Origin: Paludibacteraceae bacterium
GTDB taxonomy: Bacteria; Bacteroidota; Bacteroidia; Bacteroidales; Paludibacteraceae
Length of the DNA: 63,018 bases
NCBI GenBank assembly: GCA_905233925.1
Contig: CAJOFV010000002.1
Span: 1 to 63,018, forward strand
Direction of reading: 5' to 3'
Both the position numbers and the translations under genes were made by a program. Within the stretch, counting starts at the first letter, position 1; every line of letters begins with the position of its first letter. Positions 1-63,018 of the stretch are shown piece by piece. Under the pieces are notes generated by a model. That model did no database searches. It was not told the DNA's origin and was given only the letters and a program-made list of their open reading frames with translations.

Positions 1-58
1 GCCTATAATTTTTAAGCCCAGCCCGAACAATCGAAAACAGCCCTGAACCATTCTGAAC

Positions 59-89
59 CAAAAAAGTGTCCTTCGGGGCACTTTTTTTT
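59..89 (+). terminator. Hairpin with UUCG loop and T-run (AAAAAAGTGTCC-TTCG-GGGCACTTTTTTTT)
   Basis: Inverted repeat with one G-U pair followed by T8. Confidence 0.75.
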
Positions 90-90
90 C

Positions 91-118
91 GTTAAACGTT
101 AAACTTTCCACTTTCCAC
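91..118. repeat. 7-bp word array GTTAAAC GTTAAAC TTTCCAC TTTCCAC
   Basis: Read directly; near-identical array at 26229-26256. Confidence 0.85.
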
Positions 119-126
119 ACAAAAAA

Positions 127-158
127 TTTGCGCATTCAAATTTTTTGTAGTACCTTTG
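127..158 (+). promoter_or_regulatory. Bacteroidota-type promoter TTTG-N20-TACCTTTG upstream of nadC
   Basis: Matches -33 TTTG / -7 TAnnTTTG. Confidence 0.75.
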
Positions 159-178
159 CCGCGAAAAAAATATATAGC

Positions 179-1045
179 ATGAAAACAGAAGAATTGCGCA
201 AGCTGATTGCGCTGTGGTTTGAAGAAGATATCCGCGACGGTGACCATACCTCGCTCAGTTGTATCCCGCCCACACAAATGGGCTGCCAGCAGCTAATCGT
301 CAAAGATACCGGCATCATCGCCGGTATAGAAGTGGCCAAGGAAATAATCCGTTACTTCGACCCCGAATGCCGTGTCGAGCAGTTCTTGCACGACGGCGAC
401 GCGGTCAAGCCAGGAGATGTCGCGTTCCGTGTTTATGGCAAAGAACTGAGCCTGCTGCAGATTGAGCGCACGATGCTGAATATCATGCAGCGTATGTCCG
501 GCGTGGCAACAACGGCACATAAGTACCAAAGTCTCATAGACGACACCGGCTGCCATGTGCTCGACACCCGCAAAACAACGCCCGGACTGCGTTACCTGGA
601 GAAGGAAGCAGTGGTTATCGGCGGCGGTATGAATCACCGTATAGGTCTGTTCGACATGATTCTGCTCAAGGATAACCATGTGGACTTCGCAGGCGGCATC
701 ACGAACGCGCTCACCCGTGCACGCGATTATTGTAAAGAGAAAGGCAAAGACCTGCGCATAGAGATTGAAGTGCGCAATATGCAGGAGATAAAAGAGGCGC
801 TGGCAACAAATATCCCCGACCGTATTATGTTGGACAACTTCACGCCCAAACAAACGCGCGAGGCTGTGATTGTCATCCGCGCCTGGGAACAGTCTGCCGG
901 CAGACACATGGAAATAGAATCGTCGGGCGGTATTACCCTCGATACTATTCGCGATTATGCCCTGTGCGGCGTGGACTTTGTGTCCGTAGGCGCACTGACG
1001 CACTCTGTGAAGTCGCTGGATATGAGTTTCAAAGCCCTGCGGTAA
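179..1045 (+). CDS. nadC: Nicotinate-nucleotide pyrophosphorylase (quinolinate phosphoribosyltransferase)
   Basis: ORF translation (LDTRKTTPGLRYLEKEAVVIGGGMNHRIGLFDMILLKDNH); start moved to ATG 179. Confidence 0.95.
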   Translation: MKTEELRKLIALWFEEDIRDGDHTSLSCIPPTQMGCQQLIVKDTGIIAGIEVAKEIIRYFDPECRVEQFLHDGDAVKPGDVAFRVYGKELSLLQIERTMLNIMQRMSGVATTAHKYQSLIDDTGCHVLDTRKTTPGLRYLEKEAVVIGGGMNHRIGLFDMILLKDNHVDFAGGITNALTRARDYCKEKGKDLRIEIEVRNMQEIKEALATNIPDRIMLDNFTPKQTREAVIVIRAWEQSAGRHMEIESSGGITLDTIRDYALCGVDFVSVGALTHSVKSLDMSFKALR

Positions 1046-1051
1046 CGGATG

Positions 1052-2056
1052 ATGAAACGTTTGTTCATAGTATCAGCTTTTGCGCTTGCTCTTGTTCTGG
1101 GCGGCTGCAAAGACAAGAACACTGCCGAGGAGACACCTGCCGGCATGCTGACTTTGGAACAGCAGAAAACCTATCTCCGGCAAGCGGGCAAGCAGTTGCG
1201 CGAAGCGTTTCATACGCCCGAACAGGAATCCGCGGCAGAGTTCGCAGAAGCGTTTTGGAGCGAATATGACGGCACGCACACGAATGTCTATGCCCTGCCT
1301 AAACGGCTTGCCGCGCTGGCGCAAGGAGACGGCATGCCTGTATGTGAGGAAAAATCTCTGTTCCCGCTTGGGGAGGGCGAGGTGTTCGACTTGTCTTTCC
1401 TGGACAGCGGCGGCGAGACCTGCGTGCTTCACGCCACCCACACGTCCTTCGTGCTGATGCAGGGTCAAAAGGAGTTGTTTGGCTATGAGGTCGTTTATTC
1501 CGAAACGGAGATGATTATTGATACCGTTCGTTTCCGCGTTGCGAACAGGATAGGGCAGCTTTGCGTGCATGTGAATGACTCCGCAGCGGCGGCCACCTAC
1601 AAACTGACCGACGGCGGCACAGCGCTTATAGATGCCTCCGTGAATCTTATGGGGTACGGTTTGTGCAGTCTCTCGGATTGTATCAATGTCCGAACAGGCG
1701 TCACGAATGGCATCATCTTTGCCAACGAATATGCCGAATGGTGCAAGAACAACGGGGAGCAGGCTCTGACGCTGCAGCAGGCGCAGTACAAGGCACTCAT
1801 CCTCAACAAATACGTCTATGCCGGTATTTTCTTTCCGCAAACAGGCGGAACGGAGCAGCTGCAACTTAAGCAACTCGCGACAGAACAGTCCGGCGGTGCT
1901 TACGATGCCGAAACGGTGCTCTTCTTTACAAAAGACCAGACTTCAACGCGGGTGCTGAATTATTTTGAGTACAATTATTATGAGAAGGTTTTCTCCCTGA
2001 CGGAATACCTTGCACAGGCTTATATCCGTTTCAGGACTTCTGCTGCCAAATCGTGA
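1052..2056 (+). CDS. Hypothetical lipoprotein
   Basis: Signal peptide with lipobox (ALVLGGC-K). Confidence 0.75.
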   Translation: MKRLFIVSAFALALVLGGCKDKNTAEETPAGMLTLEQQKTYLRQAGKQLREAFHTPEQESAAEFAEAFWSEYDGTHTNVYALPKRLAALAQGDGMPVCEEKSLFPLGEGEVFDLSFLDSGGETCVLHATHTSFVLMQGQKELFGYEVVYSETEMIIDTVRFRVANRIGQLCVHVNDSAAAATYKLTDGGTALIDASVNLMGYGLCSLSDCINVRTGVTNGIIFANEYAEWCKNNGEQALTLQQAQYKALILNKYVYAGIFFPQTGGTEQLQLKQLATEQSGGAYDAETVLFFTKDQTSTRVLNYFEYNYYEKVFSLTEYLAQAYIRFRTSAAKS

Positions 2057-2577
2057 ACCGGTACAGAACCGTCGTTGACAAGAACGATGTCTGCAAGCGC
2101 GCGGGCGTCGTTTTTTTGCGCTTGAATGCGGGCTTTGACTTGCTCGGGATTACTGTGGTCACGGGCAACTGTACGGGCAATGCGGATTTCCTCCGGCGCG
2201 TCAATATAGACCACTTTGTCACAAAGGGTATTCATTCCGCTTTCGTATAAGATGGCACATTCAACAAAGCAAACGTTTTTGCCTTTAGCCCAATGCTCCA
2301 CATCAAACCGCACCGCCGGATGAACGATGGCGTTCAGCCGGTGCAGCAGGTCTGGATCGGCAAAGACTTGTGCGGCAACTTTGTCGGTCAAGTAGGTGTC
2401 GCCGTCAAAGACCTCGCTGCCGAATAGCGTCTCAATCTGCGAACGCACTGCGGGATTGTGCACGATGATGCGTTTGGCTTCGCGGTCGGTGTCATACACC
2501 GGATAACCCTGCTTTGCCAACTCCGCCGCTATCGTGGACTTGCCGCTTCCTATTCCGCCTGTGATGCCAATGGTCAT
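2020..2577 (-). CDS. coaE: Dephospho-CoA kinase
   Basis: MTIGITGGIGSGKSTIAAEL P-loop; start at 2577. Confidence 0.93.
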   Translation of the reverse strand: MTIGITGGIGSGKSTIAAELAKQGYPVYDTDREAKRIIVHNPAVRSQIETLFGSEVFDGDTYLTDKVAAQVFADPDLLHRLNAIVHPAVRFDVEHWAKGKNVCFVECAILYESGMNTLCDKVVYIDAPEEIRIARTVARDHSNPEQVKARIQAQKNDARALADIVLVNDGSVPVHDLAAEVLKRI

Positions 2578-2580
2578 ACA

Positions 2581-2628
2581 AAGATTTGAAGATTTGAAGA
2601 TTTGAAAATTTGAAGATTTAGAATTGGA
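2581..2628. repeat. 8-bp word array (AAGATTTG)n, about 6 units
   Basis: AAGATTTG x3, AAAATTTG, AAGATTTA, GAATTGGA. Confidence 0.85.
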
Positions 2629-4486: not shown

Positions 4487-4506
4487 TCCTTTCTACTTTG
4501 GTCTTT

Positions 4507-10759: not shown

Positions 10760-10803
10760 AATCACATACGAATCACATATGAATCACATACCAATCACAT
10801 ACG
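10760..10803. repeat. 11-bp word array (AATCACATACG)x4
   Basis: AATCACATACG/AATCACATATG/AATCACATACC/AATCACATACG. Confidence 0.92.
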
Positions 10804-10862
10804 TTTGGCAGGTGCATGTTATAGTCGGGGTAAATATAAAAGCGACCGGAATGGTCGCCTAG

Positions 10863-10935
10863 TGGTACCTCTTGGAGTTGAACCAAGGACACATGGATTT
10901 TCAGTCCATTGCTCTACCACCTGAGCTAAGGTACC
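10863..10935 (-). tRNA. tRNA-Phe (anticodon GAA)
   Basis: Cloverleaf: GGTACCT/AGGTACC acceptor, anticodon loop CTGAAAA, GGTTCAACTCC T-arm. Confidence 0.93.
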
Positions 10936-18510: not shown

Positions 18511-18565
18511 ACCTTCCAACGCCGACGGTCAGCCGACACGCAACCGGCAGATGACCATTGGTGAA
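18511..18565. repeat. 11-bp register array (CCGACGGTCAG / CCGACACGCAA / CCGGCAGATGA / CCATTGGTGAA)
   Basis: Read directly; same word family as 26276-26363. Confidence 0.65.
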
Positions 18566-18625: not shown

Positions 18626-21600
18626 ATGAGAAAGATTCTTTCTTTAGTAATGGCTGTCCTGTTTACAGGCAGTTTGTTGGCAACTGATTACCAGTTGGTG
18701 AAATCCACATCGGATTTGAAAGTGGGCTCCAAGTACGTGATCGGTAATGCCAAGAGCGGTAAGGGCATATTTATGTCCACCGAAAACCGAGCCAACAACC
18801 GTGGCATTGAAGCGGACATTACCATTACCGATGGTAAGATGACCGCGACTGACAAAGTCCTGGTTCTTGAGCTGGGTGGAAAAGAGGGCGCTTGGACGTT
18901 CAAAACAACCAACTATCTGGGAACAGACGGTTATTTGACGAGCGCGGCTACAGGAAAAAACAACTATTGTAAAGTTTCTGCTACAGAGGAAGATTGCAGC
19001 AAGTTTACAATTGTGTTCAACTCTGCTGACAGTGCGGTTATTACAAGTACCGGTCGTAGCGAGCGCAACATCTTGCGTTACAACAAAACAAATTCCGTTT
19101 TTGCATGCTACACTTCCGGACAAGATTCTATCTTCCTGTACAAGGAAGTAGCAAGCGGCGGTGGCAGTGGTTCGACCACAACAACCATCTACTGCAAGAT
19201 GACACAATCTTGGTGGACGGCTGACGGAGCTGCTGTTGGTGTTCACTATTGGGGAGGCACAAGCGAAGGCACAACATGGCCGGGTGTGCGCATGAGTCCT
19301 GTATCAGGTGAAGAGGGAACGTGGTCGTATGATGTTCCGTCTGATATCACAGGTATTATTTTCACGCGTGTTAATCCCAGCGGTGCTGTTACTGACTGGG
19401 GCGCAAAAACCGGTGACCTGACTCTCCCGACAGATGGTAATGACCTCTACACCATTACTTCTTCTACTGCTGTTTGGGGCAGCCCCTGCGCAGGCGAATG
19501 GTCTAAATATGCTACCGGCGGCGGTGGCGGCGGTGGTTCAACTACTGCATACTACATGAAGAACTGCTGGAACGGTGCGACCGACTGGACATGGAAAGCC
19601 ATGGAGCAGGACGGTGCGAACTATAAACTGTCGAATGTTGTATTCGGTGGCACTGGTGTAAACTACAATACCGCAGAAAGCGACGCCGGTTCCACATGGG
19701 TAGCTATTGACGCTATTGCTGGTGACAAGATTGCTGCTTTGGATACCGTTGACTTGGTTCTTGATCCGGTTGCAAAGACTGTTACTGCTACTTTGCTTGG
19801 CAAGTACGATGCCGGTGGCGGCAGCGGCGGTGGTGGTTCTTCCGAAGCTAAATACTACATCACTGGTAACAGCGCATTGGTAGTTGACGCGGGTCTGACA
19901 GCTGACAAAGCATGGGCTGCTAACGCAATTGCAGTTACTGAGGCTGATGCTTACAAACTGAACTTGAAGGCTGACGTTGCTTACCAGCTGAAAGTGACCA
20001 AAGACGGTACATGGAATGACGGTCAGGTAGTTGGCTACAGCGCATTGACAGGCGACAAGCCCGCCGGTGTAACCGCTGATGGCGATGACAACCTCTGCTT
20101 CTCGTTGTCTGAGGCAGGTGAGGTAATCGTTACCTACAATGCTTCGACCTTCACAATCGCCGGTAAGTTCAATACCAGCGGTGGTGGCGGCGGTTCAACC
20201 GACGCATATTACATGAAGAACTGTTGGAACGGCGCGACCGACTGGACATGGAAAGCCATGGAGCAGGACGGTGCGAACTACAAGCTGTCGAATGTTGTAT
20301 TTGGTGGCACAGGTGTGAACTACAATACAGCAGAGAGCGATGAAGGTTCTACCTGGGTTCCTGCTGAAGAGATTCTCGGAGCCAAGATTGGTGCATTGGA
20401 TACCGTTGATTTGGTTCTTGATCCGGTTGCAAAGACTGTTACAGCAACCTTGATTGGCAAGTATGAGATTCCTTCTGACGCGAAGTACTATATGAAGAAC
20501 AACTGGAACGGTGCAACTGACTGGACTTGGAAAGAAATGACCAAAGACGGTGCAACCTACAAGTTGGAGAACGTAGTATTCGGTGGTACAGGTGTGAACT
20601 TCAATACTAAAGAGGAAGACTCCGGTTCGACATGGGTAGCTGTTGATGCTATTCTTGGCGACAAGATTGCTGCTCTGGATACCGTTACCTTGGTTCTTAA
20701 ACCTGGCGACGCTGAAGTTACGGCTACCTTGCTCGGCAAGTATGAAGGCGGTAGCGGCGGTGGCGGTTCTACCGAAGCGAAGTACTTCATCACCGGTGAC
20801 AGCGCATTGGTAGTTGACGCAGGTCTGGCAGCTGACAAGGCTTGGAACGCTGCTGCTATTGCAGTTACCGAAGCTGATGCTTACAAACTGAACCTGAAAG
20901 CTGACGTTGCTTACAAACTGAAAGTGACCAAAGACGGTACATGGAATGATGGTCAGGTAGTTGGCTATAGCGCATTGACAGGCGACAAGCCCGCCGGTGT
21001 AACAGCTGACGCAGATGACAACATTTGCTTCACGCTCGCAGAGGCAGGTGAGGTAACCGTTACCTACAATGCGACCACCTTCACAATCGCCGGTAACTTC
21101 GACACCAGCAGTGGTGGCGGTTCAACCGACGCAGACTACTACCTGAAGAACTGCTGGAACGGCGGTGACTGGGCTTGGAAAGGAATGACCAAAGACGGTG
21201 ATACCTACAAGCTGGAGAATGTAGTCTTCGGCGGCACGGGTGTGAACTACAACACCGCTCAAGACGACGCAGGTGCAACCTGGGTAGCTATTGAAGAAAT
21301 TCTTGGTGACAAGATTGGCGCGTTGGATACTGTAACCTTCGTATTTAATCCTGTTGCAAAGACTGTTACCGCAACCTTGATTGGCAAGTATCAGGTTCCT
21401 GCTGATGCGAAGTACTATATGAAGAACAACTGGAACGGCGCAACCGACTGGACATGGAAAGAAATGACCAAAGACGGTGCTAACCAAAAGCTGGAGAACG
21501 TTGTCTTCGGTGGCACAGGTGTGAACTACAATACAGCAGAAAGTGATGCAGGTTCCACATGGGTAGCTATTGACGCTATTCTTGGCGACAAGATTGGTGC

Positions 21601-22744
21601 TCTGGATACTGTAACCTTCGTTCTTGATCCTGCTGCAGGTACCGTTACGGCTACCTTGCTTGGCAAGTATGAAGGCGGTGGTAGTTCCACTGAAGCGAAG
21701 TACTTCATCACCGGTGACAGCGCATTGGTTGTCGACGCCGGTCTGGCAGCCGACCAGGCTTGGAACGCTGCTGCTATCGCAGTTACCGAAGCTGATGCTT
21801 ACAAGCTGAACCTCAAGGCAGGCGTTGCTTATAAACTGAAAGTGACCAAAGACGGTACATGGAATGACGGTCAGGTAGTTGGCTACAGCAACTTGACAGA
21901 CAAGCCCGCCGGTGTAACAGCTGACGCAGATGACAACATTTGCTTCACGCTTGCAGAGGCTGGTGAGGTAACTGTTGCCTACAATGCTGCTGCGTTCACT
22001 ATCGCAGGTAAATTCGCTGCACCTGTTGCTGCTAAGTTCTACGTAGTAGGTGGCGGTGATGCGTTCGGTAACTGGAATCCGTCTGCTATCCCTGTAATGG
22101 ATGACATCTTTACCATCAAGAACCTTGAGCCGGGTCTCTACAAGTTCCGCATCTCGCTGGATGGTACTTGGAACAATACCAAGGGCTTCTCTGACCTGAC
22201 AACCGTTGCTGAGGGCTTGAGCGAGGGCGATGATAACAACATCATCTTCGGCTTGACCGTTGCAAGTGACGTAACGATTACCTACACCGGAACAATCTTC
22301 ACTGTTGAAGGTAACTTCGCTACCTCGCAGATTGCTCAGTACGGTCTGTTCATCGACGGTACAACCTTCGTTGGCGCAGAGCTTAATCCGGACGACAACA
22401 ACGAGCTGATGATTGTTGATCTCGCGCTGACCGCTGGTCAGACCTTCGTCCTCTACGACAATGCAAGCAAAGCCGGTTGGGCTGCTGCTATCTGGAAAGA
22501 CGATACGAGCTACAAGTTCAATATCGAGAACGATGCATATGTTGTTTCCGAGACAGCTGTTTATGACTTCTACCTGCACATTGAGGCTAACAACGATTAC
22601 CTCTATGTCGTTAAGCACGAAGAAATGGCTAACGAGAACATCTACGGCGTTGGTTCTGAGCTCCGCAAGGTTATTGAGAACGGCGTAATGTACATCTACC
22701 GTGACGGTAAGAAGTACAGCGTTCAGGGTCTCCTTGTTGAATAA
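18626..22744 (+). CDS. Large secreted modular protein: CBM-like domain, five 'YYMKNCWNGATDWTWK' modules, three or four X25/SusE-like modules, one divergent repeat module, second-type tail
   Basis: Internal repeats at protein and DNA level; signal peptide without lipobox. Confidence 0.8.
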   Translation: MRKILSLVMAVLFTGSLLATDYQLVKSTSDLKVGSKYVIGNAKSGKGIFMSTENRANNRGIEADITITDGKMTATDKVLVLELGGKEGAWTFKTTNYLGTDGYLTSAATGKNNYCKVSATEEDCSKFTIVFNSADSAVITSTGRSERNILRYNKTNSVFACYTSGQDSIFLYKEVASGGGSGSTTTTIYCKMTQSWWTADGAAVGVHYWGGTSEGTTWPGVRMSPVSGEEGTWSYDVPSDITGIIFTRVNPSGAVTDWGAKTGDLTLPTDGNDLYTITSSTAVWGSPCAGEWSKYATGGGGGGGSTTAYYMKNCWNGATDWTWKAMEQDGANYKLSNVVFGGTGVNYNTAESDAGSTWVAIDAIAGDKIAALDTVDLVLDPVAKTVTATLLGKYDAGGGSGGGGSSEAKYYITGNSALVVDAGLTADKAWAANAIAVTEADAYKLNLKADVAYQLKVTKDGTWNDGQVVGYSALTGDKPAGVTADGDDNLCFSLSEAGEVIVTYNASTFTIAGKFNTSGGGGGSTDAYYMKNCWNGATDWTWKAMEQDGANYKLSNVVFGGTGVNYNTAESDEGSTWVPAEEILGAKIGALDTVDLVLDPVAKTVTATLIGKYEIPSDAKYYMKNNWNGATDWTWKEMTKDGATYKLENVVFGGTGVNFNTKEEDSGSTWVAVDAILGDKIAALDTVTLVLKPGDAEVTATLLGKYEGGSGGGGSTEAKYFITGDSALVVDAGLAADKAWNAAAIAVTEADAYKLNLKADVAYKLKVTKDGTWNDGQVVGYSALTGDKPAGVTADADDNICFTLAEAGEVTVTYNATTFTIAGNFDTSSGGGSTDADYYLKNCWNGGDWAWKGMTKDGDTYKLENVVFGGTGVNYNTAQDDAGATWVAIEEILGDKIGALDTVTFVFNPVAKTVTATLIGKYQVPADAKYYMKNNWNGATDWTWKEMTKDGANQKLENVVFGGTGVNYNTAESDAGSTWVAIDAILGDKIGALDTVTFVLDPAAGTVTATLLGKYEGGGSSTEAKYFITGDSALVVDAGLAADQAWNAAAIAVTEADAYKLNLKAGVAYKLKVTKDGTWNDGQVVGYSNLTDKPAGVTADADDNICFTLAEAGEVTVAYNAAAFTIAGKFAAPVAAKFYVVGGGDAFGNWNPSAIPVMDDIFTIKNLEPGLYKFRISLDGTWNNTKGFSDLTTVAEGLSEGDDNNIIFGLTVASDVTITYTGTIFTVEGNFATSQIAQYGLFIDGTTFVGAELNPDDNNELMIVDLALTAGQTFVLYDNASKAGWAAAIWKDDTSYKFNIENDAYVVSETAVYDFYLHIEANNDYLYVVKHEEMANENIYGVGSELRKVIENGVMYIYRDGKKYSVQGLLVE
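19547..22015. repeat. Intragenic super-repeat of about 0.92 kb (module order C-C-X), at least 2.5 copies
   Basis: C modules start near 19547, 20207, 20482, 21130, 21406; X modules near 19849, 20776, 21697. Confidence 0.85.
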
Positions 22745-23355: not shown

Positions 23356-23404
23356 TCCATCGGGTAGGGGCGGCTGATTACCGCCTCTGCTCCCAAACGG
23401 TTTT

Positions 23405-23444
23405 CGAAATATCGACTTGTCGAGATATCGAGACTTCGTATAAA
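23405..23444. repeat. 8-bp register array CGAAATAT CGACTTGT CGAGATAT CGAGACTT CGTATAAA
   Basis: Read directly. Confidence 0.7.
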
Positions 23445-25862: not shown

Positions 25863-25877
25863 TGCTCAAGGCTCGAA

Positions 25878-25938
25878 AGAATGAATGAGTGAATGAGTGA
25901 AAGAATGAATGAGTGAAATGAGTGAATGATTGAATGAA
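25878..25938. repeat. 4/8-bp array (GAATGAGT)n
   Basis: Read directly. Confidence 0.85.
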
Positions 25939-25940
25939 AG

Positions 25941-25963
25941 AAGCGGCGTAATGCCGCTTTTTT
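25941..25963 (+). terminator. AAGCGGC-GTAAT-GCCGCTTTTTT
   Basis: Hairpin plus T-run. Confidence 0.75.
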
Positions 25964-25993: not shown

Positions 25994-26072
25994 TATGTAG
26001 GGCTTTAGCCCGCTGTGTAGGCGCTTGCGCCGCTGTGTAGCGCGCAGCGCGATGTGTAGGCGTAGCCCGCCC
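25994..26072. repeat. Four about-20-bp units: constant T(A/G)TGTAG followed by a different palindromic core in each
   Basis: Units start at 25994, 26014, 26034, 26053. Confidence 0.85.
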
Positions 26073-26228
26073 GTTCATCCGTTCATCCGTCCATCCGTTC
26101 ATCCGTTCATCCGTTCATCCGTTCACCCGTTCATCCGCTCATCCGTTCACCGTTCATCCGTTCATCCGTTCATCCGTTCACCGTTCATCCGTTCATCCGT
26201 TCACCGTTCATCCGTTCACCGTTCATCC
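26071..26228. repeat. 8-bp array (GTTCATCC)n with 7-bp GTTCACC variants
   Basis: Read directly, about 20 units. Confidence 0.95.
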
Positions 26229-26256
26229 GTTAAACATTAAACCTTCCACTTTCCAC
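26229..26256. repeat. 7-bp array GTTAAAC ATTAAAC CTTCCAC TTTCCAC
   Basis: 26/28 match to 91-118. Confidence 0.9.
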
Positions 26257-26275: not shown

Positions 26276-26363
26276 CCGACGGTCGCCCGACGGTGCCCCG
26301 ACAGTCGCCCGACAGTCGACCGAAAATCATTCGGCGGTAAACCGTCGGTAATCCGAAAGTTAA
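26276..26363. repeat. 11-bp register array, 8 units (CCGACGGTCGC family)
   Basis: CCGACGGTCGC/CCGACGGTGCC/CCGACAGTCGC/CCGACAGTCGA/CCGAAAATCAT/TCGGCGGTAAA/CCGTCGGTAAT/CCGAAAGTTAA. Confidence 0.85.
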
Positions 26364-26400: not shown

Positions 26401-26460
26401 CCGACACAACCAAAGAGAACCGTCCAAAACAATTTTGAACGCCTTTGAACCCTTCTGAAC
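26401..26460. repeat. 10-bp register array, six units each ending AAC
   Basis: CCGACACAAC/CAAAGAGAAC/CGTCCAAAAC/AATTTTGAAC/GCCTTTGAAC/CCTTCTGAAC. Confidence 0.8.
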
Positions 26461-30879: not shown

Positions 30880-32235
30880 ATGCCCAGCCGCTCGGCACAT
30901 CGATTTTTATCACTTGGCATCATTTGCCTGATATATGTATCGCCTGTTTTTGCGGGCGATACTATTTATGTGATGAGCGATACCTATGCCGGCGTTGCCA
31001 AGGATACTTTCAAACTCCAAAACCAACAATCTGCCGTTGATAATGACGACCTGCTCCTGCAATTAGTCGCGCAGCAAAGCCACGAAATATTCATTCGGGA
31101 CTCTATCCGCCAAGACTCTCTTTTGCAGCAACTTATCCTGCGGGATTCCGCGCTACAAGCTGAATTAACCGCCTTGCAGGATCGCCTCATTAAGACTCAA
31201 GACTCCATCCGAAAACTCCAGGAATTACTCCATCCGACACCTCCCGCTGAAGAACTGTCAACTGCCAACTCCCAACTGTCAACTGACATTGACCCCTTGC
31301 AGCAGGAGATTGACTCGCTCTCACGCGAATTGGCGGATAAGATTTACATCAATCGTGCCGGTATTGAAAAGTCCATCTTCCGCGATCTCGATGCAGATTT
31401 AGAAGACGTCTCACGCAACCTCCGCGAGCGATATTCCCACTGGTACAAGGAGGCAAATCTCATGGCGCAATTCACCCAAAACTATATCTCACCCAACTGG
31501 TATAAAGGCGGTAACAGCCAATTCGCCATCTTGAACATTGCCAAGGGACAAATCAATTACCGCAAAGACCGTATCACGTGGGAGAACCTCGGCGAATGGC
31601 GTGCCGGCGTCACCACCACACCGGGCGACACGCTTCGCAAATACAATGTCACCGACGACATGTTCCGACTCTATAGTAAATTTGGCTATCAAATCGTCCC
31701 GAAACTATACGCCGTTGCTTCCGTCGAGTTGAATACCACACTCTGGAACGTCTGGAATGAAAACCAATCTACCGTTAAAACGGCGTTCATGACGCCTGCT
31801 AAATTCTATATCCATGGCGGTTTGGATTATCGACCCATCGAGGACCTCAGTATCTACTTTGCACCAGCTACATACAAGCTCGTCTATGCACACTTTGGCG
31901 ATGGCGATAGTATCCACAACGTCAACGTCACTAACTACGGCATAAAAGCCGGAGAACAGCTCCTCAGCGAATTTGGTAGCACCTTGCGCGTACAGTGGAG
32001 ATGGCACCCTGTGCGTGAGTTCGGACTCGATACGGAGTTTTACCTCTATACCAATTATAAAACTGTTGAAATTGATTGGGAAATCAATGGCGAATTCTAC
32101 ATCAACCGTTTCTTAAGTATTCGCTTGATGCTCCATCCTCGTTTTGATTCCGCATATATTGCAGAAGGCGATACCAAACCAAAAATCCAGTTCAAAGAAC
32201 TGCTATCCATTGGATTCTCCCATAAGTTCCGCTAA
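30880..32235 (+). CDS. DUF3078-like outer-membrane protein with N-terminal coiled coil
   Basis: YISPNWYKGGNSQFAILNIAKGQINYRKD; similar to 38030-39190. Confidence 0.7.
   Translation: MPSRSAHRFLSLGIICLIYVSPVFAGDTIYVMSDTYAGVAKDTFKLQNQQSAVDNDDLLLQLVAQQSHEIFIRDSIRQDSLLQQLILRDSALQAELTALQDRLIKTQDSIRKLQELLHPTPPAEELSTANSQLSTDIDPLQQEIDSLSRELADKIYINRAGIEKSIFRDLDADLEDVSRNLRERYSHWYKEANLMAQFTQNYISPNWYKGGNSQFAILNIAKGQINYRKDRITWENLGEWRAGVTTTPGDTLRKYNVTDDMFRLYSKFGYQIVPKLYAVASVELNTTLWNVWNENQSTVKTAFMTPAKFYIHGGLDYRPIEDLSIYFAPATYKLVYAHFGDGDSIHNVNVTNYGIKAGEQLLSEFGSTLRVQWRWHPVREFGLDTEFYLYTNYKTVEIDWEINGEFYINRFLSIRLMLHPRFDSAYIAEGDTKPKIQFKELLSIGFSHKFR
31253..31294 (+). repeat. 7-bp array inside a CDS: AACTGTC AACTGCC AACTCCC AACTGTC AACTGAC ATTGACC
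   Basis: Read directly. Confidence 0.85.
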
Positions 32236-32778: not shown

Positions 32779-32786
32779 AATAATCC

Positions 32787-32814
32787 TAAATCTTAAATCT
32801 TAAATCCTAAATAT
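32787..32814. repeat. 7-bp array TAAATCT x2, TAAATCC, TAAATAT
   Basis: Read directly. Confidence 0.85.
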
Positions 32815-35437: not shown

Positions 35438-35469
35438 TCAAATTCTCAAATTCTCAAATCTTCAAATAA
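35438..35469. repeat. 8-bp array TCAAATTC x2, TCAAATCT, TCAAATAA
   Basis: Read directly. Confidence 0.85.
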
Positions 35470-36168: not shown

Positions 36169-36191
36169 TCTTCAAATTTTCAAATCATTAA

Positions 36192-36608
36192 ATGTCACTG
36201 AAAAGAAGAAATAGGGTAGAGGCGACCTTCGCGATGTCCAGCATGACGGACTTGATTTTCCTCTTGCTGCTCTTTTTTGTGATGGCATCAACCATGTCCT
36301 CGCCCAATGATATTAAGATAAATCTTCCGCAGGCGAAAGCGAGAACCAACACCAAACAAGTGGTTGCCAAAGTGTCGATTGACAATCTGGGCAATTACTT
36401 TGTGGCACTTGGGCGCGAGAAACCCGTTGCTATCAATGTGGAGGACTTGGAGAGCTATTTGTGCGGCATTCAGCAAATGGATTCCGCAATGTATATTGCC
36501 CTACATGCAGACCAAGACATCGCTTATAAGGAAGTGGTAAACGTGCTGGACATCGCCAATCAGCACAAGATGAAACTCGTCATTGCTACGAGACACAATG
36601 GTCAGTAA
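36192..36608 (+). CDS. exbD: ExbD/TolR family protein
   Basis: MSSMTDLIFLLLLFFVMAS. Confidence 0.92.
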   Translation: MSLKRRNRVEATFAMSSMTDLIFLLLLFFVMASTMSSPNDIKINLPQAKARTNTKQVVAKVSIDNLGNYFVALGREKPVAINVEDLESYLCGIQQMDSAMYIALHADQDIAYKEVVNVLDIANQHKMKLVIATRHNGQ

Positions 36609-37953: not shown

Positions 37954-37964
37954 GAACAGACATC

Positions 37965-37996
37965 GACATATCGACATCTCGTCATATCGACATCTC
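37965..37996. repeat. 8-bp array GACATATC GACATCTC GTCATATC GACATCTC
   Basis: Read directly. Confidence 0.88.
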
Positions 37997-38029
37997 GAAA
38001 AAAATAATAACAACTAAAAAAACAAAACA

Positions 38030-41332: not shown

Positions 41333-41363
41333 AAAAAAAGCCGCCATCGTGGCGGCTTTTTTT
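41333..41363 (+). terminator. AAAAAAAGCCGCC-atcg-GGCGGCTTTTTTT (bidirectional)
   Basis: Perfect hairpin plus A/T runs. Confidence 0.9.
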
Positions 41364-41402
41364 ATTCATTCACTCATTCAATCTTTCACTCCTTAATATA
41401 TA

Positions 41403-44468: not shown

Positions 44469-44538
44469 GACCTGCAAGCAACAAAATATTCACGAAATAC
44501 ATGGTAAATCCCAGTGACTTTGCGGAGAACGAGCCAGT

Positions 44539-44593
44539 AGTTAGTTATTAGTTAGATATTAGTTAGATATTAAGCCAAGAGAAAGCAGAGAGA
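44539..44593. repeat. 11-bp array AGTTAGTTATT AGTTAGATATT x2, AAGCCAAGAGA, AAGCAGAGAGA
   Basis: Read directly. Confidence 0.88.
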
Positions 44594-44626
44594 AGTATAA
44601 CTGCACAAAAATTGAAAAACAAAGGT

Positions 44627-47342: not shown

Positions 47343-47407
47343 TTTTGTCACAAAAACCTTACAATTTGTGAAAAAATGACACTTTTCAGCACTTTTCTCA
47401 ACTTTTA

Positions 47408-47439
47408 TTTGCATATATCAAAAAATAGCAGTACCTTTG
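47408..47439 (+). promoter_or_regulatory. Promoter TTTG-N20-TACCTTTG upstream of susC
   Basis: Motif match. Confidence 0.75.
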
Positions 47440-53820: not shown

Positions 53821-53875
53821 TCGAGTCCCAGCCGAGACGCTACCGAGACGTTAACGGGACGTTAGCACGTCGCCG
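53821..53875. repeat. 11-bp register array TCGAGTCCCAG CCGAGACGCTA CCGAGACGTTA ACGGGACGTTA GCACGTCGCCG
   Basis: Read directly. Confidence 0.8.
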
Positions 53876-54948: not shown

Positions 54949-55298
54949 GTGTAATGTGTAATGTTTAATGGGCAAAAAAACGTAGCGGAATGTGAAGAAG
55001 AGTAATAATCGTTCGTAACGAATGTGAAGATAAGAACGGGACCATCACGGGACCATTCCCTGACAACATGACTTTTAGAACACTTTAGACGAATAAGAAA
55101 TAAGGAATAAAGAATTAAGAAAATCACAAAAAATCGCAACTAAATTTGCATAGTTGCGATTTTTGTTGTCCAATTATCTCTTACCCCACTTTTACCGAAT
55201 CCTATACGAAGGATAAACGAACGATAAACGAATCATAAACAACGCATATGCATAAGAGTACCGCAAGAGAACCGTAAGAGAAGCATAAGACAAACATA
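54949..55298. repeat. Mosaic of five short-period arrays (7, 11, 7, 11, 11 bp)
   Basis: GTGTAAT x3 (54949); ACGGGACCATC x2-3 (55036); GAATAAG x4-5 (55091); 11-bp units in one register 55189-55298. Confidence 0.8.
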
Positions 55299-55415
55299 AC
55301 TGCTTTTTTGTTGTACCTCTTTGCCGCAAAGCAACAAGATATCATTCTCCACTACTACAGCGTAGCACAACAAAGAGCAGAAAAGTGCAGTATTTTCGGA
55401 AAAAGTACATTTTTT

Positions 55416-55447: not shown

Positions 55448-55452
55448 CAGCC

Positions 55453-56359: not shown

Positions 56360-56434
56360 AATCACTTAAATAATAAACAACGGAAGAAGCCGAAAATCCG
56401 ATAAAGAGTAGGCAAAACGAAACAACAAACAACA

Positions 56435-57238: not shown

Positions 57239-57239
57239 T

Positions 57240-57668
57240 ATGAACCTGAAAATAACGTTATTTACCATAGTGGCTTCCCTAATGCCCGCTTTCACGTGGG
57301 CATTGGGGATGCCAGAATGGATTAAGCACATGCCAAAAGCAGGAAATGACACCTACTACTATCGTGTTACAAAAGCCGAAGGCAAAGATTACGAACAGGC
57401 TTATACCAAAGCGTTTTCTATGGCTATTCTTGAAAGTCAATGGAAGCTTGGGGTAAAAGTTTCAAAAACGGAGGACGTACAAACGGTTGAACAAACATTG
57501 CAAAATGAACTTAATCTGAAAAGCAGTAATATGGTTCTCCCGATGAACAAAGTCTGCGAATATGAACAAGCGAGTCAATACGGCGGAATTATTTTGTATT
57601 GTCTATGGCAAGTGGCTATGTATGGTAACGTGAAAGCCGAATTTGAAGATTATTTAGACTGCGAATAA
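57240..57668 (+). CDS. Secreted LPP20-like protein (tentative)
   Basis: MPEWIKHMPKAGNDTYYYRVTKAEGKDYEQAYTKAFSMAI. Confidence 0.6.
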   Translation: MNLKITLFTIVASLMPAFTWALGMPEWIKHMPKAGNDTYYYRVTKAEGKDYEQAYTKAFSMAILESQWKLGVKVSKTEDVQTVEQTLQNELNLKSSNMVLPMNKVCEYEQASQYGGIILYCLWQVAMYGNVKAEFEDYLDCE

Positions 57669-57671
57669 ATT

Positions 57672-58604: not shown

Positions 58605-58609
58605 TGGGC

Positions 58610-60565
58610 ATGAAATGTAAAGTATCTTTATGGGGCATCATTACAACCACCATACTTGGCTTTTCTATTCTTTTTAGTGGCTGTAATAAAGATGAAGTCA
58701 ACGCCGAAGTCAAGTATTATGGGAAAGTGGTACGTGTCAATTCTGGACTTCCTTTCCCTAACCTGGAAGTAAAAGTGACAGATGGCAATAATACACATTG
58801 TCAGACTTTCACGGATACGGAAGGAAAGTTCTCGCTTCTTGTCAAAGTTAACGAGATAAATGGTAATTACTATGTCCTTGTTGGAGATATCTCTTGTGTA
58901 CAGAAGCGGATTGAATTTCCTGGTTTCGGACAGGCAGAGATAGACCTCGGAACTATTGAAATTGAAGGACCTGCATTGCCTGTCGTTAAGACGAAACCGA
59001 TAAGTAATGTTTCTGATAATAAAGCCACGTCCGGAGGAGAAGTCGTATCGGACGGACGCTCTCCCGTAACCGCTCGGGGCGTTTGTTGGTCAAAATCGGA
59101 ATATCCGACAACGGAAAACGGGCATTCCACTAATGGTTCCGGTTTAGGAGAATTTACTAGCCAATTGGTAGAATTGGAGGCTGGAGCAACATATTATGTT
59201 CGTGCGTATGCTACTAATAGTGTAGGAACAGGTTATGGAGAGCAATTAACCCTTTCTACCTCAACGGGTTTGCCTCGAGTAATTACTGATTCTGTGTTTG
59301 AGATAACTTCGACTACTGCCAAGTGTGCAGGAAATGTTGAAGCGAATTTTGGTTATGCTATTACAGCCAGAGGAGTATGTTGGAGTGATGCCACTGCAAC
59401 CCCGACTCCTAATAATGGACATACAGAAGAAGTCGCAGCTACTGGAAAATTTACCAGTTTGATGATTGGTTTGGAACATAGCCATACCTACTATGTACGT
59501 GCATATGCTGTAAGTGAAAAGGGTATAGGATACGGTGAAACTATTAAATTCACAACCACAGATGGCAAACCTGTAGTGGAAACCGGTGCAGTTTCAAACA
59601 TTACAGCAACAACAGCGACAATAAGTGCGACCGTAATTTCACAAGGAGATTCGCCGCTAACAGCGTGTGGAGTATGTTGGAGCAATGCGACATCATCTCC
59701 ATCACTATCAGATGATCATACTGACGAGGTGGCAAGAGTAGGTGAATTTACTAGTAAAATGATAAATTTGACAGGAATGTCAACGTATTATGTCCGTGCG
59801 TATGCCTCCAATCAAAACGGAACAGTTTATGGAAATACCGTAAGTTTCTTTACAGCTGCTACTGCAGATGGACTACCTATTGTATCAACATTAGATCCGG
59901 GAGAAAACATAACAAGCACCTCCATTTCTACTGGTGGTAATGTAACTAATGATGGCGGTTTCCCTGTTACCGAATGTGGCGTTGTATATAGTACTTTGCC
60001 ATATCCAACTCTTAATAATGCGGAAAAAGTGGTTGGAGGAAGTGGCGTTGGTTACTATTCTGCCACCATTACGGGAGTTTCACCATCGGAAAAGACGTAT
60101 TATATTCGCGCTTATGCCACTAATGTTAATGGTACATCTTATGGTGATCAAGTTATAGTCACACCTGAAAAATCGGAATACTTGAGTTTGAAGACAATGT
60201 CTTATGGAGGCTATACTTATCGAATTAAGTTTATGGGCGAATTATCATGGTATGATGGCAATAATGCTTGCCAGAACATGGTGGTCGGTGGATACTCTGA
60301 TTGGTTTATGCCGGATAAGGCTGAAGTACAAGCTATAATTGCGGCATATGGTTTATGGAATAAAACAGTTACCACCACTGATAATTCGTCACTCCGAATG
60401 AATGGATGTACAAATATATGGACAGGGCAAGATTCCGGAAATTACGCATACTACTATTACATAAAGGATACCGGAGGATCTAGTTACAAATGGATGTGGG
60501 CATTAGGGAGTGATACCAGTAGCAAATCTAATGTTAAAGGAGTATTTGCAGTACGAAAGTATTAG
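58610..60565 (+). CDS. Lipoprotein: carboxypeptidase-regulatory-like domain, four Ig/FN3-like repeats, DUF1566-like C-terminus
   Basis: GVCWS..NGHT..FTS..YYVRAYATN..GTGYG repeats; YSDWFMPDKAEVQAI. Confidence 0.85.
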   Translation: MKCKVSLWGIITTTILGFSILFSGCNKDEVNAEVKYYGKVVRVNSGLPFPNLEVKVTDGNNTHCQTFTDTEGKFSLLVKVNEINGNYYVLVGDISCVQKRIEFPGFGQAEIDLGTIEIEGPALPVVKTKPISNVSDNKATSGGEVVSDGRSPVTARGVCWSKSEYPTTENGHSTNGSGLGEFTSQLVELEAGATYYVRAYATNSVGTGYGEQLTLSTSTGLPRVITDSVFEITSTTAKCAGNVEANFGYAITARGVCWSDATATPTPNNGHTEEVAATGKFTSLMIGLEHSHTYYVRAYAVSEKGIGYGETIKFTTTDGKPVVETGAVSNITATTATISATVISQGDSPLTACGVCWSNATSSPSLSDDHTDEVARVGEFTSKMINLTGMSTYYVRAYASNQNGTVYGNTVSFFTAATADGLPIVSTLDPGENITSTSISTGGNVTNDGGFPVTECGVVYSTLPYPTLNNAEKVVGGSGVGYYSATITGVSPSEKTYYIRAYATNVNGTSYGDQVIVTPEKSEYLSLKTMSYGGYTYRIKFMGELSWYDGNNACQNMVVGGYSDWFMPDKAEVQAIIAAYGLWNKTVTTTDNSSLRMNGCTNIWTGQDSGNYAYYYYIKDTGGSSYKWMWALGSDTSSKSNVKGVFAVRKY

Positions 60566-60608
60566 TAAAAAACAAATTATAATTAACAATTTTCAGATTA
60601 TTTAACTT

Positions 60609-62303
60609 ATGAACAAAAAAATTCTTTTTGCGCTGGCATTGCTGATGTTTGGCGCAACAGCATGGGCAGATGACGTGCTCAATCGTGTCCATCCGAATGA
60701 AGCCTCTTACAAAATTGAGGGTAATTTTAATTATCGCGTTGAAAACGGTCAAGTTTTGTATGAACTGACAGATGTTGTACCAACTGGGTTGCAAATCCAG
60801 CAACGCAGTGTATACAAAGGTACACAACCCGAGGGGAAAGAGGTTATGTTTACCTTTGACCAAATTGTTGTACCAGACGGATTCCCTGGATTCGACAATA
60901 TCTCTTATTGGTATTATGATCCGGATATCAAAGATTGGCAACCTGATGTGGAAATCCGCAAAGGTGAACGCACTAACGAATTACGCAAGGATATTACAAT
61001 GGTTCTTATCATTGACTGCTCAAATTCCTTGAAGAGTGATTTTACTATGGTTAAAAATGCGACTGCTCGTTTTTTGAAACAAATGTATGATGCGGCGCCC
61101 AACGGAAATGTACATATAGGAATTATCGGTTTCTCCAGTATGCCCGATACACAAATTTTACCTATACAGCCTCTTAATGGAGGAACTTACAATAGTATGC
61201 AAAACTTTGTGCGCAACTTGACCACTAGCAATGGTACTGCACTTTTCTATTCTTGGGATAAGGCCGTAGAAGCAACAGTACGTTATATCCAAAACGGGAA
61301 TATGCGCAACTATGAGAAATCTCACTTTATCACATTTACGGATGGTATTGACCAAACATCACAAGATGTAAACCGTCGCCCAACCCCCATAGTAACCGCA
61401 GATGACTATTATAATTATATCATTAATGCTGCCAAAAACAAGATTAGCAATTATGAAAGTGATGTCGTATTTGTAAAGGGTATAGATATTACGAATGACC
61501 AACAGCAAGCTAAATTTGAAAACAAATTGAGACAACTTGCAGTTCCGAATGACAATATGCACTATGAACGCTTGGAAAGTATTAGCCGTTTGGAATATAA
61601 ATTCAGCCAGATTGCGAACCGTTTGACGGATTCTTGGAAAGTGCTTAATTGTTATGTGGCTCCTGCTCGTCATGGCCGCGTTTGTTGGACTTTTGGTAAG
61701 AAAGAATACAAACCTGCTCCAGCTCCCAAACCGGCGCCCGTTGTTAAAAACGGTCGTAACATATTTGTCGGCCTAAGTTTCACATTTGGACTCCCTATCG
61801 GAATGCCTCATACTGAGTCCTATCGCTACACATATTCTACCTACGATCCATATTATGATGACTATAACTATGAAACTTCGTATAGTTATACAACATATAC
61901 GGCGCTAGGTCTATATTTGAAGTTTGGTGTTGATTTTGCGTATCCTGTATCGGACAAGTTCGGTATTGGTGCATATACTGTAATCGGTGGCGGTCCGGAT
62001 ATGAGAATTGGCGGTGGCGGTGCGAATTTTGCAGGCGGAATGGATTTCAAGGTTGGTTTATTAATGCTGGCTGGTGATGTAAATGATCGTCCGTTCATTA
62101 TCGGTATCGCTCCATGTACTGGTTTTGCGTTTGATTATTTTGGTGGTTATTTGCCGCTTGAGATTCGATTTGGTAGAGTCACCAAAAAACATTTGTATGT
62201 AACGGGTAATATTACATTTGGTATGCCTTTGGATGGCGAATTTGTGATTGAACCGGCATTGAGCATTGGTTATCACTTCGGTGACAAACTGAAGACAAGA
62301 TAA
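60609..62303 (+). CDS. VWA-domain protein with C-terminal barrel-like domain
   Basis: MVLIIDCSNSLKSDF (MIDAS-like DCSNS), ITFTDGIDQTS; C-terminal FVGLSFTFGLPIG.. Confidence 0.75.
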   Translation: MNKKILFALALLMFGATAWADDVLNRVHPNEASYKIEGNFNYRVENGQVLYELTDVVPTGLQIQQRSVYKGTQPEGKEVMFTFDQIVVPDGFPGFDNISYWYYDPDIKDWQPDVEIRKGERTNELRKDITMVLIIDCSNSLKSDFTMVKNATARFLKQMYDAAPNGNVHIGIIGFSSMPDTQILPIQPLNGGTYNSMQNFVRNLTTSNGTALFYSWDKAVEATVRYIQNGNMRNYEKSHFITFTDGIDQTSQDVNRRPTPIVTADDYYNYIINAAKNKISNYESDVVFVKGIDITNDQQQAKFENKLRQLAVPNDNMHYERLESISRLEYKFSQIANRLTDSWKVLNCYVAPARHGRVCWTFGKKEYKPAPAPKPAPVVKNGRNIFVGLSFTFGLPIGMPHTESYRYTYSTYDPYYDDYNYETSYSYTTYTALGLYLKFGVDFAYPVSDKFGIGAYTVIGGGPDMRIGGGGANFAGGMDFKVGLLMLAGDVNDRPFIIGIAPCTGFAFDYFGGYLPLEIRFGRVTKKHLYVTGNITFGMPLDGEFVIEPALSIGYHFGDKLKTR

Positions 62304-62329
62304 TTATATAATATCAAAATTTTCAGGCA

Positions 62330-62373
62330 AAAGGAGAGTGTGCCATAAGTTTTTGGTACACTCTTTCCTTTTT
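62330..62373 (+). terminator. AAAGGAGAGTGTGCC-loop-GGTACACTCTTTCCTTTTT
   Basis: Long hairpin plus T-run after 62303. Confidence 0.8.
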
Positions 62374-62393
62374 GCATTGGATGGCTGTATTTT

Positions 62394-62673
62394 GAGTTCC
62401 AATGGGGACACTTCATGGTCTTTGTCTGGGCGTTCATGCAAAAGTCTGCCTGCTCCAGATAATAATTTTAGTCAAGAAGGAACGGTTATTGTCGCTATCA
62501 TAGTTGATAACAAAGGCAAAGTTATTAGTGCCAAAGCAGCGGAAGGTACCACGATTTCGGATAATGCTACAGTACAGTTGGCTATAAAAGCGGCTTATAA
62601 AGCGGAGTTCTCCTATACTAATCAACCCGACAAACAAACAGGAACAATTACTTATATCTTTAAGTTTAAGTAA
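62394..62673 (+). pseudogene. TonB-like C-terminal domain fragment, paralogous to 37150-37413
   Basis: GDTSWSLSGRSCKSLPAPDNNFSQEG..TITYIFKFK vs GGTSWSLAGRSCKSLPAPSNNFSQEG..TITYIFKYK. Confidence 0.65.
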
Positions 62674-62680
62674 TCATCTT

Positions 62681-62786
62681 GTGGCTTCCAATCGGGATAC
62701 TGCCGAGATGCAGCAAGCATAAAAAAACAAAAAGCCAAGAGAAAACAAGGAGAAGTCTTGGAGAAGTCCCGGTGAAGTCCCATAAT
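62681..62786. repeat. 11-bp register array including AAGCCAAGAGA AAACAAGGAGA AGTCTTGGAGA AGTCCCGGTGA AGTCCCATAAT
   Basis: Read directly; shares AAGCCAAGAGAAA with 44572-44584. Confidence 0.8.
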
Positions 62787-62798
62787 GGTCCTTGCTTT

Positions 62799-62827
62799 AT
62801 CCGCATGCTATGCAGGCGGATTTTTTT
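62799..62827 (+). terminator. ATCCGC-atgctatgca-GCGGATTTTTTT
   Basis: Hairpin plus T7. Confidence 0.75.
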
Positions 62828-62929
62828 CGCCGCTGACCGTGCTGCTTACAAAGGGACTGAACAAAAATGGAGCACTATTATTCCATATGTTAAGCATCTC
62901 TTAAGGTAGTTCCTTGTGAATTCCGAAAA

Positions 62930-63010
62930 TTGAGCAAATAAGCTATTACTTTTGAGTAAAAATACCATATAAATTGAGTAAAAATACCAATAATTTTGAG
63001 TAATATTTGC
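62930..63010. repeat. 22-bp periodic TTGAG(TAAAAATACCA) repeat, 4 units to window edge
   Basis: TTGAG at 62930, 62952, 62974, 62996. Confidence 0.9.
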
Positions 63011-63018
63011 ATGTGTCA

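What the first reader, a model, noticed from the sequence alone, without database searches (positions are those of the whole stretch)
1..63018. Window-wide family of intergenic tandem arrays built from 7-, 8-, 10- or 11-bp words kept in register while the words differ
Many operon junctions contain short degenerate arrays with a fixed period but locus-specific words. 11 bp: 10760-10803, 18511-18565, 26276-26363, 44539-44593, 53821-53875, 55036-55068, 55189-55298, 62732-62786. 8 bp: 2581-2628, 23405-23444, 26071-26228, 35438-35469, 37965-37996. 7 bp: 91-118, 26229-26256, 31253-31294, 32787-32814, 54949-54969, 55091-55125. 10 bp: 19-58, 26401-26460, 47380-47409. Units are mostly non-identical, unlike ordinary microsatellites, yet phase is kept for up to about 10 units. 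This suggests a repeated short-duplication process or selection for helically phased sites. I know of no named element with these properties.
Basis: partly seen in the sequence, partly recalled or inferred. Interest (0 to 1): 0.88.

Follow-up and report, generated by a model that had tools for sequence, protein, structure and literature searches.

The report
Intergenic 7-, 8- and 11-bp arrays
The gaps between genes in this gut bacterium (a member of the Bacteroidales) hold many short repeat arrays with units of 7, 8 or 11 bases that come, go and swap between sister species, and the 7/8-base kind also forms the paired ends of a small, widespread, apparently mobile gene (IVP/S23), a link I did not find described before.

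Summary
The arrays are real. In 798 kb of this genome (Paludibacteraceae-like MAG, Bacteroidales) intergenic arrays have period 7 (22), 8 (63) or 11 (59), almost never 9, 10, 12 or 13 (4, 4, 2, 0); shuffles give about 9 for periods 5-16 together, and CDSs are poor in them. The 10-bp arrays are weak. Words are not locus-specific: they form families dispersed over many junctions, with species-specific word repertoires. At 16 orthologous junctions with an array in G000 or a sister species (~80% nt identity), arrays are mostly absent from one or replaced by unrelated words or periods, while the flanks stay. Two classes emerge. (1) 11-bp arrays: dispersed leader-array-tail elements, laid out like P. 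gingivalis BrickBuilt. (2) 7/8-bp arrays: the same kind of array brackets, mostly inverted, genes of the 23S-rRNA intervening-sequence protein (IVP/S23, PF05635) in Bacteroidales, cyanobacteria and Azospirillum: inverted flanks in 20/35 IVP genes versus 23/1446 controls. Class 2 thus joins cyanobacterial STRRs and the heptamers of the Coxiella rRNA IVS. Best reading: class 2 arrays are solo arms or relics of IVP-type mobile units. Causality is unshown: two near-complete species keep arrays without a detected IVP. Reverse transcription and all-frame-stop models are disfavoured.

The parts
2581..2617 (-). 8-bp array (AATCTTCA family) filling the junction between two co-directional genes; the orthologous junction is 8 bp in G153 and 6 bp in G058
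10760..10802 (-). 11-bp array, word CGTATGTGATT x4, 3' of tRNA-Phe; five dispersed copies in the genome share the 4-unit pattern and flanks
10803..10813 (-). leader box (CACCTGCCAAA) of the 11-bp element
18511..18565 (.). weak 11-bp periodic stretch (CCGAC words), marginal
   Evidence: any-period p 0.05
23404..23433 (.). short degenerate 8-bp array (CGAGATAT)
25875..25942 (.). 8-bp array (GAATGAGT) upstream of secA
26071..26231 (.). 8-bp array CCGTTCAT x about 20, nearly uniform VNTR; same word family as the inverted arms of an IVP gene on contig C54 (L236)
26229..26256 (.). 7-bp array GTTAAAC/TTTCCAC following the 8-bp array; composite shared with window 91-118, L023, L024, L035
26275..26363 (+). 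11-bp array CCGACGGTCGC with drifting words
91..118 (.). 7-bp array GTTAAAC/TTTCCAC at the contig start
31253..31285 (+). 7-bp array AACTGCC inside a predicted CDS (30973-32235), not intergenic
32782..32812 (.). 7-bp array filling an intra-operon junction (42 bp here); 9-19 bp in G155, G158 and G153, overlapping genes in G058, unrelated 7-bp array in G131 and 8-bp array in L114
35435..35467 (.). 8-bp array (TTCAAATC) from the pdxJ stop codon; G153 has an unrelated 15-bp array (AAATCGCTAAATCGT), G131 an 8-bp TTTGTAAT array, G158 none
36169..36193 (.). short 8-bp array TCTTCAAA; G153 has CAATTTAA at the same place
37962..37998 (.). 8-bp array ATCGACAT; G153 carries an 11-bp ACGATAGATTT array at the orthologous junction
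41361..41394 (.). 8-bp array TTCACTCA
44528..44537 (+). leader box AACGAGCCAG of the 11-bp element
44538..44594 (+). 11-bp array AGTTAGTTATT/AGTTAGATATT followed in register by tail words AAGCCAAGAGA; 7 dispersed copies; junction compact in five genus-mates, unrelated 11-bp array TATTATTATGT/TATTATTATGA in G010
53822..53864 (-). 11-bp array CGAGACGTTAA
54948..54970 (.). 7-bp array TGTGTAA
55036..55068 (.). 11-bp, two good units ACGGGACCATC plus one degenerate
55092..55121 (.). 7-bp array AATAAGA
55196..55299 (+). two consecutive 11-bp arrays with different words (CGAACGATAAA, then AAGAGAACCGT)
62726..62781 (+). 11-bp array of tail-type words (AAGCCAAGAGA to GGAGAAGTCCC)

Best explanation
The window samples two classes of fast-turnover, dispersed intergenic arrays. 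Class 1 (11 bp, sometimes 22): short elements with a leader box, 3-6 copies of an 11-bp word and often an in-register tail. They are copied as units to many gene junctions, with word and leader characteristic of a species. Class 2 (7 or 8 bp, also 15/16): arrays of the type that forms the inverted arms of IVP/S23 (PF05635, TIGR02436) four-helix-bundle genes. The commitment: IVP genes travel as small units whose ends are 7/8-bp tandem arrays in inverted orientation, like the terminal inverted repeats of the rRNA IVS, and the many lone 7/8-bp arrays are solo arms, relics or IVP-less copies. They persist where an insertion does no harm, which is why they fill compact operon junctions from stop codon to start codon. 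Shown: existence, period restriction, dispersal of word families, gain/loss/replacement at orthologous junctions, and association of inverted 7/8-bp arrays with IVP genes in three phyla. Inferred: that IVP units move, that IVP acts in the movement, and that lone arrays derive from such units.
For: Period restriction: 7:22, 8:63, 11:59 versus 9:4, 10:4, 12:2, 13:0 in G000; the same shape in G153 (7:16, 8:20, 9:2, 10:5, 11:38, 12:2, 13:0) and in other Bacteroidales (7:33, 8:12, 9:5, 10:5, 11:14, 12:0, 13:2). Dispersal: the same multi-unit pattern at 3-7 loci; 11-bp leader box at 20/52 arrays versus 2.9 expected, and 3/72 versus 3.0 for 7/8-bp arrays (the box was derived from this genome); species-specific word abundance. 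Turnover: of 93 orthologous G000/G153 junctions, 77 have no array (median spacer 4 bp), 4 have one only in G000, 4 only in G153, 8 in both; in most of the last the words, and often the periods, are unrelated between conserved flanks. IVP arms: in Bacteroidales 12/21 IVP genes have inverted flank similarity >=17 versus 20/1264 control genes; on plasmids of cyanobacteria, Azospirillum and Gemmatirosa 8/14 versus 3/182, and 22/28 IVP flanks carry 7/8-type arrays versus 4/364 control flanks. Other-family genomes with no such array at 416 control flanks have them beside IVP genes. Polymorphic IVP unit: G153 has IVP between inverted TTGATAA arrays at the secA junction, where G158, G155, G131 and G182 have 6 bp or less and G000 17 bp (TTGACAATGGATAGTAT). 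Word sharing: the CCGTTCAT/AACGGATG family forms the arms of the G000 IVP and lone arrays including window 26071. Outside support: Coxiella IVS has GACAGAT heptamers before its S23p ORF, varying in number between strains, plus terminal inverted repeats (PMC4990558).
Against: G058 (97% complete) and G012 (92%) have 7-bp arrays but no detected IVP, so IVP is not needed to keep arrays; G000 has 2 IVP genes against 80-odd 7/8-bp arrays. About 40% of IVP genes show no clear inverted arms, and L256 and L261 have direct ones. 11-bp arrays have no tie to IVP. The G000 leader box is absent from G153 (0/34). No transposase, target-site duplication or excision product was shown. Period restriction itself remains unexplained. 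Word matching between IVP arms and lone arrays rests on two genomes.
Confidence: 0.5

Rival explanations
1. Pure slippage or short-duplication bias: a polymerase or repair activity makes tandem duplications of 7, 8 or 11 bp anywhere; they survive only between genes. IVP genes simply tend to sit in such regions.
For: Period restriction holds across Bacteroidales; arrays at the same junction in sister species have unrelated words; 7- and 8-bp arrays also occur, rarely, inside CDSs; heptamer excess in many bacteria has been ascribed to polymerase contact length (cited in PMC4692102).
Against: The same words, and the same order of unit variants, recur at unrelated loci, and leader boxes are shared, which local duplication does not give. 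Slippage does not explain inverted arms around IVP genes or the gap at 9, 12 and 13.
Confidence: 0.27
2. Protein-binding arrays under selection, e.g. 11-bp direct repeats for OmpR/PhoB-type response regulators, helically phased.
For: 11 bp is a known spacing of such sites (own knowledge); one array (L045 5395) reads TGTCAACCTCT TGTCAGCTTTA TGTCAGCTTCA; leader-box arrays are mostly co-oriented with both neighbours (12 of 20).
Against: Arrays lie mostly inside operon junctions and after stop codons, not in promoters; words and periods are replaced at orthologous junctions; a dozen words would need a dozen regulators; period 10 is rare; 7 and 8 bp do not fit.
Confidence: 0.08
3. Template-copied additions by a reverse transcriptase (telomerase- or retron-like), adding (word)n to DNA ends; this would give inverted arrays on both sides of an insert.
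For: Explains fixed period, both orientations and species-specific words (inference).
Against: RVT_1 is absent from 15 of 18 genomes tested, including G153, G058, G011, G007, G023 and G082.
Confidence: 0.05
4. Translation insulation: periods not divisible by 3 put a stop codon in all three frames.
For: 7, 8, 10 and 11 are not multiples of 3; 9 and 12 are rare.
Against: Arrays with stops in all frames: 77 observed, 75.5 expected after column permutation; 13 is absent too.
Confidence: 0.02

Closest known systems
STRR / heptameric simple sequence repeats of cyanobacteria and Xanthomonas (PMC4692102)
   Same: Short intergenic tandem arrays, dispersed, word families, mostly between co-directional genes; in Xanthomonas 70-75 cases lie as inverted pairs.
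   Different: There one heptamer family dominates and about 90% of sites are kept between two species; here 7, 8 and 11 bp coexist, many words per genome, and sites turn over between sister species. That paper does not mention IVP/S23.
TAACTGA direct repeats of Beggiatoaceae, cyanobacteria and Bacteroidetes (PMC4679880)
   Same: 7-bp arrays next to start codons, sporadic taxonomic spread, found in Paludibacter propionicigenes.
   Different: One word; no IVP link reported; interpreted as translational regulation.
BrickBuilt MITE of Porphyromonas gingivalis (PMC4596501)
   Same: Bacteroidales; intergenic dispersed array with leader and tail segments, variable unit number, 19 copies.
   Different: 23-nt unit, one family, small terminal inverted repeats; the 11-bp elements here have many words, an in-register tail, and no terminal inverted repeat was found.
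23S rRNA intervening sequence (IVS) with S23p/IVP ORF, Coxiella and Leptospira (PMC4990558)
   Same: IVP ORF, terminal inverted repeats, heptameric tandem repeats before the start codon; suspected mobile element.
   Different: Sits in rRNA genes; here IVP units sit between ordinary genes with longer inverted 7/8-bp arrays, and lone arrays far outnumber IVP genes.
Avd accessory protein of diversity-generating retroelements (NF033474)
   Same: Homologous four-helix-bundle family.
   Different: IVP proteins here score far below the Avd cut-off (36.6 or less versus 80 bits) and most genomes tested lack RVT_1.

Membership tests
STRR (short tandemly repeated repetitive) heptamers | 7-bp units in tandem, intergenic, dispersed in many copies of one word | tested here: met
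   7-bp word families, e.g. TTGAYAA at 21 places in 520 kb of G153 and GTTGAGA at 11 in 153 kb of G007; but 8- and 11-bp arrays in the same genomes fall outside the definition
BrickBuilt-type minisatellite MITE | dispersed array with conserved leader and tail | tested here: met
   leader box at 20/52 11-bp arrays versus 2.9 expected; tail AAGCCAAGAGA seen after three word families. Holds for G000 only: 0/34 in G153
BrickBuilt-type minisatellite MITE | terminal inverted repeats and 23-nt unit | tested here: not met
   11-bp unit; no inverted partner of the word at 11-bp arrays apart from one poly-A case
IVS/IVP (PF05635, TIGR02436) unit | ORF of the four-helix-bundle family | tested here: met
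   for the IVP loci: TIGR02436 hits E 1e-25 to 1e-37, PDB 2rld/2gsc. No IVP gene was seen in the window
IVS/IVP (PF05635, TIGR02436) unit | inverted repeats around the ORF | tested here: met
   20/35 IVP genes versus 23/1446 controls
IVS/IVP (PF05635, TIGR02436) unit | insertion in 23S rRNA and excision by RNase III | not tested
   loci here lie between protein genes; RNA processing cannot be seen from sequence
OmpR/PhoB direct-repeat operators | 11-bp spaced sites in promoters, conserved between relatives | tested here: not met
   words replaced at orthologous junctions; arrays in operon junctions
phase-variable microsatellite (contingency locus) | unit-number variation among strains switching a gene | not testable with these tools
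   one genome per species held; no strain series

The most novel reading that the evidence does not exclude
IVP/S23 four-helix-bundle genes define a widespread class of minimal mobile unit whose ends are 7/8-bp tandem arrays in inverted orientation. Lone intergenic heptamer and octamer arrays in Bacteroidales, cyanobacterial STRRs and perhaps the Xanthomonas heptamers are their solo ends, and the rRNA IVS is one special landing site. This would join four separately described repeat phenomena and give the orphan IVP family a role.
Probability: 0.35. Interest if true: 0.88.

Novelty: new variant of a known kind. Interest (0 to 1): 0.72.

Why it matters
Short intergenic arrays have been noted for decades in cyanobacteria, Xanthomonas, Beggiatoaceae and Bacteroidetes without a source. 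Here they are shown to be restricted to periods 7, 8 and 11, to be swapped between sister species at the same junctions, and, for 7/8 bp, to be the same kind of sequence that brackets IVP/S23 genes in several phyla. That gives a testable origin and a candidate protein, and suggests that IVP units, so far known mainly from rRNA genes, move widely between ordinary genes. If wrong, a mutational process with a sharply quantised unit length still needs explaining.

Tried and rejected
All-frame stop codons: no enrichment. Reverse-transcriptase copying: RVT_1 missing from 15/18 genomes. Strand-specific RNA role of the main 8-bp word: AATCTTCA occurs in both orientations about equally at operon junctions. 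Restriction to this genus: first suggested by eight outgroup genomes but withdrawn, since SecA-locus flanks from other Bacteroidales show the same periods sporadically. Leader box as a general feature: present in G000, absent from G153, which has its own flank motif. A 1403-bp insertion at the secA junction of L168/G058 looked like an element but is two ordinary genes. A paper search for 11-bp/8-bp repeats in Bacteroidetes found nothing, and one joining S23 proteins with heptameric repeats found no paper on the link.
Full report
Setting. The window is contig C2 of a 1.76-Mb, 126-contig MAG; the best named SecA relatives are Paludibacteraceae and Candidatus Colicola MAGs, mostly of animal gut origin. 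I took 378 kb, then 798 kb in all including the window, from the same genome, 520 kb of a sister species G153 (SecA 97%, about 80% DNA identity), and samples of other genus-mates and other families. Genes were called with a home-made hexamer model, so gene boundaries are approximate.

Is it real? A local array detector finds, in G000, 22 arrays of period 7, 63 of 8, 59 of 11, and 4, 4, 2 and 0 of 9, 10, 12 and 13; shuffles give about 9 for all periods 5-16 together. G153 gives 16, 20 and 38 against 2, 5, 2 and 0. In 85 kb of intergenic DNA from other Bacteroidales the numbers are 33, 12 and 14 against 5, 5, 0 and 2. The restriction to 7, 8 and 11 is therefore sharp and order-wide, though patchy by genome. 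Single coordinates were checked one by one: 10-bp entries and 18511 are weak, one entry is in a CDS.

Anatomy. Many of the 8-bp arrays fill a compact operon junction from the stop codon of one gene to the start codon of the next. The main 8-bp word occurs on either strand. 11-bp arrays recur as whole patterns: AGTTAGTTATT AGTTAGATATT AGTTAGATATT (with small changes) at seven loci, CGTATGTGATT at five, and so on. In G000 arrays of different words share a leader box A[AC]C[GC][AT]GCCAA (20/52 versus 2.9 expected; 7/8-bp arrays 3/72 versus 3.0) and several share the tail AAGCCAAGAGA in register. The box was found in the same genome in which it was counted, and G153 lacks it (0/34), having a different flank motif in its ACGATAGATTT family.

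Turnover. Ninety-three junctions could be matched between G000 and G153. Seventy-seven have no array and a median spacer of 4 bp. Four have an array only in G000, four only in G153. Eight have arrays in both, and most of these are unrelated in word and often in period: C8 10247-10422 has ATCACCCAATA in G000 and TCGTAAATCTA in G153 with the flanking ATATATAAGGTGTTG kept; C28 5629 has an 8-bp array in one and an 11-bp array in the other; 37954 likewise. Window junctions compared with six close relatives tell the same story. So some junctions tolerate arrays, and the arrays there are replaced in short evolutionary time, while the period set stays.

The IVP link. At the secA junction G153 has a short gene of the 23S rRNA intervening-sequence protein family (PF05635) between TTGATAA arrays in inverted orientation; four relatives have 6 bp or less there and G000 17 bp. 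Looking at other IVP genes showed the same in several families of the order, with different words: AACGGATG (8 bp), ATTGATG (7), TTGTCAG (7), AATAATTG (8). A query of plasmid records then gave IVP homologues almost only in cyanobacteria, the classic home of heptamer STRRs; their flanks, not used to form the idea, carry inverted arrays such as GGGAGTA, AAAGGGG and AGGAGATA. Counts against ordinary genes: inverted flank score >=17 in 8/14 plasmid IVP genes versus 3/182 controls, and 12/21 Bacteroidales IVP genes versus 20/1264; array-bearing flanks 22/28 versus 4/364 on plasmids, and 0/416 in other-family controls. The Coxiella rRNA IVS has heptamers before its S23p ORF and terminal inverted repeats (PMC4990558). 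I found no paper in the held library that makes this link, but subscription papers are not held.

Mechanism. Inverted arms on both sides are not what one gets if IVP genes drop into an existing direct array; they suggest that arrays belong to the unit, as the stem of the rRNA IVS does. Lone 7/8-bp arrays share words with arms in the two genomes where both could be seen. Hence the reading that they are solo ends or relics. Against this, G058 and G012 keep 7-bp arrays with no IVP found, and lone arrays far outnumber IVP genes. The 11-bp class seems separate and resembles BrickBuilt in layout. RT-based copying and all-frame stops were tested and not supported. Slippage with a quantised unit length remains the main rival and may well act on arrays once formed.

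Limits. IVP loci were taken from the best-scoring matches, not at random; the plasmid set is mostly cyanobacterial; the flank test uses 120 bp on either side whether or not a neighbouring gene begins there; shuffles keep dinucleotides but not larger-scale composition.

Verdict.

Noticed in passing
window 1-178; starts of contigs C9, C10, C12, C15 (L023, L024, L026, L035): Contigs of this MAG tend to begin in or near the composite 8-bp/7-bp array (CCGTTCAT, GTTAAAC/TTTCCAC), which suggests it breaks the assembly and is under-represented here.
   Followed up: partly
L253 689-1057 and L256 692-1051: In two cyanobacterial plasmids (Anabaena sp. 90, Pseudanabaena galeata) an IVP gene with heptamer arrays sits between cas6 and cas4; in Picosynechococcus (L254) one sits between cas10 and the Cmr3-family gene.
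   Followed up: no
window 10760-10935: An 11-bp array follows tRNA-Phe on the minus strand, within the possible 3' trailer of the tRNA transcript.
   Followed up: no
L191 (G153 secA, C5:74511-77825): The G153 secA reading frame is reported with one in-frame TAG; assembly error or real was not checked.
   Followed up: no
window 56380-56414 (+): Rfam match to the cis-regulatory DUF805b RNA, 46.9 bits (gathering 35.6).
   Followed up: no
window 18650-22744 (+): Large ORF (1364 aa) with an internal 279-bp tandem repeat at 20213-20745 and no Pfam family above its cut-off.
   Followed up: no
G153 C5 (concatenated sample 90830-93205) and G000 contig C3 3960-4481 (L012): A few 8- and 11-bp arrays of the intergenic word families lie inside predicted CDSs; either gene calls are too long or arrays also enter genes.
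   Followed up: partly
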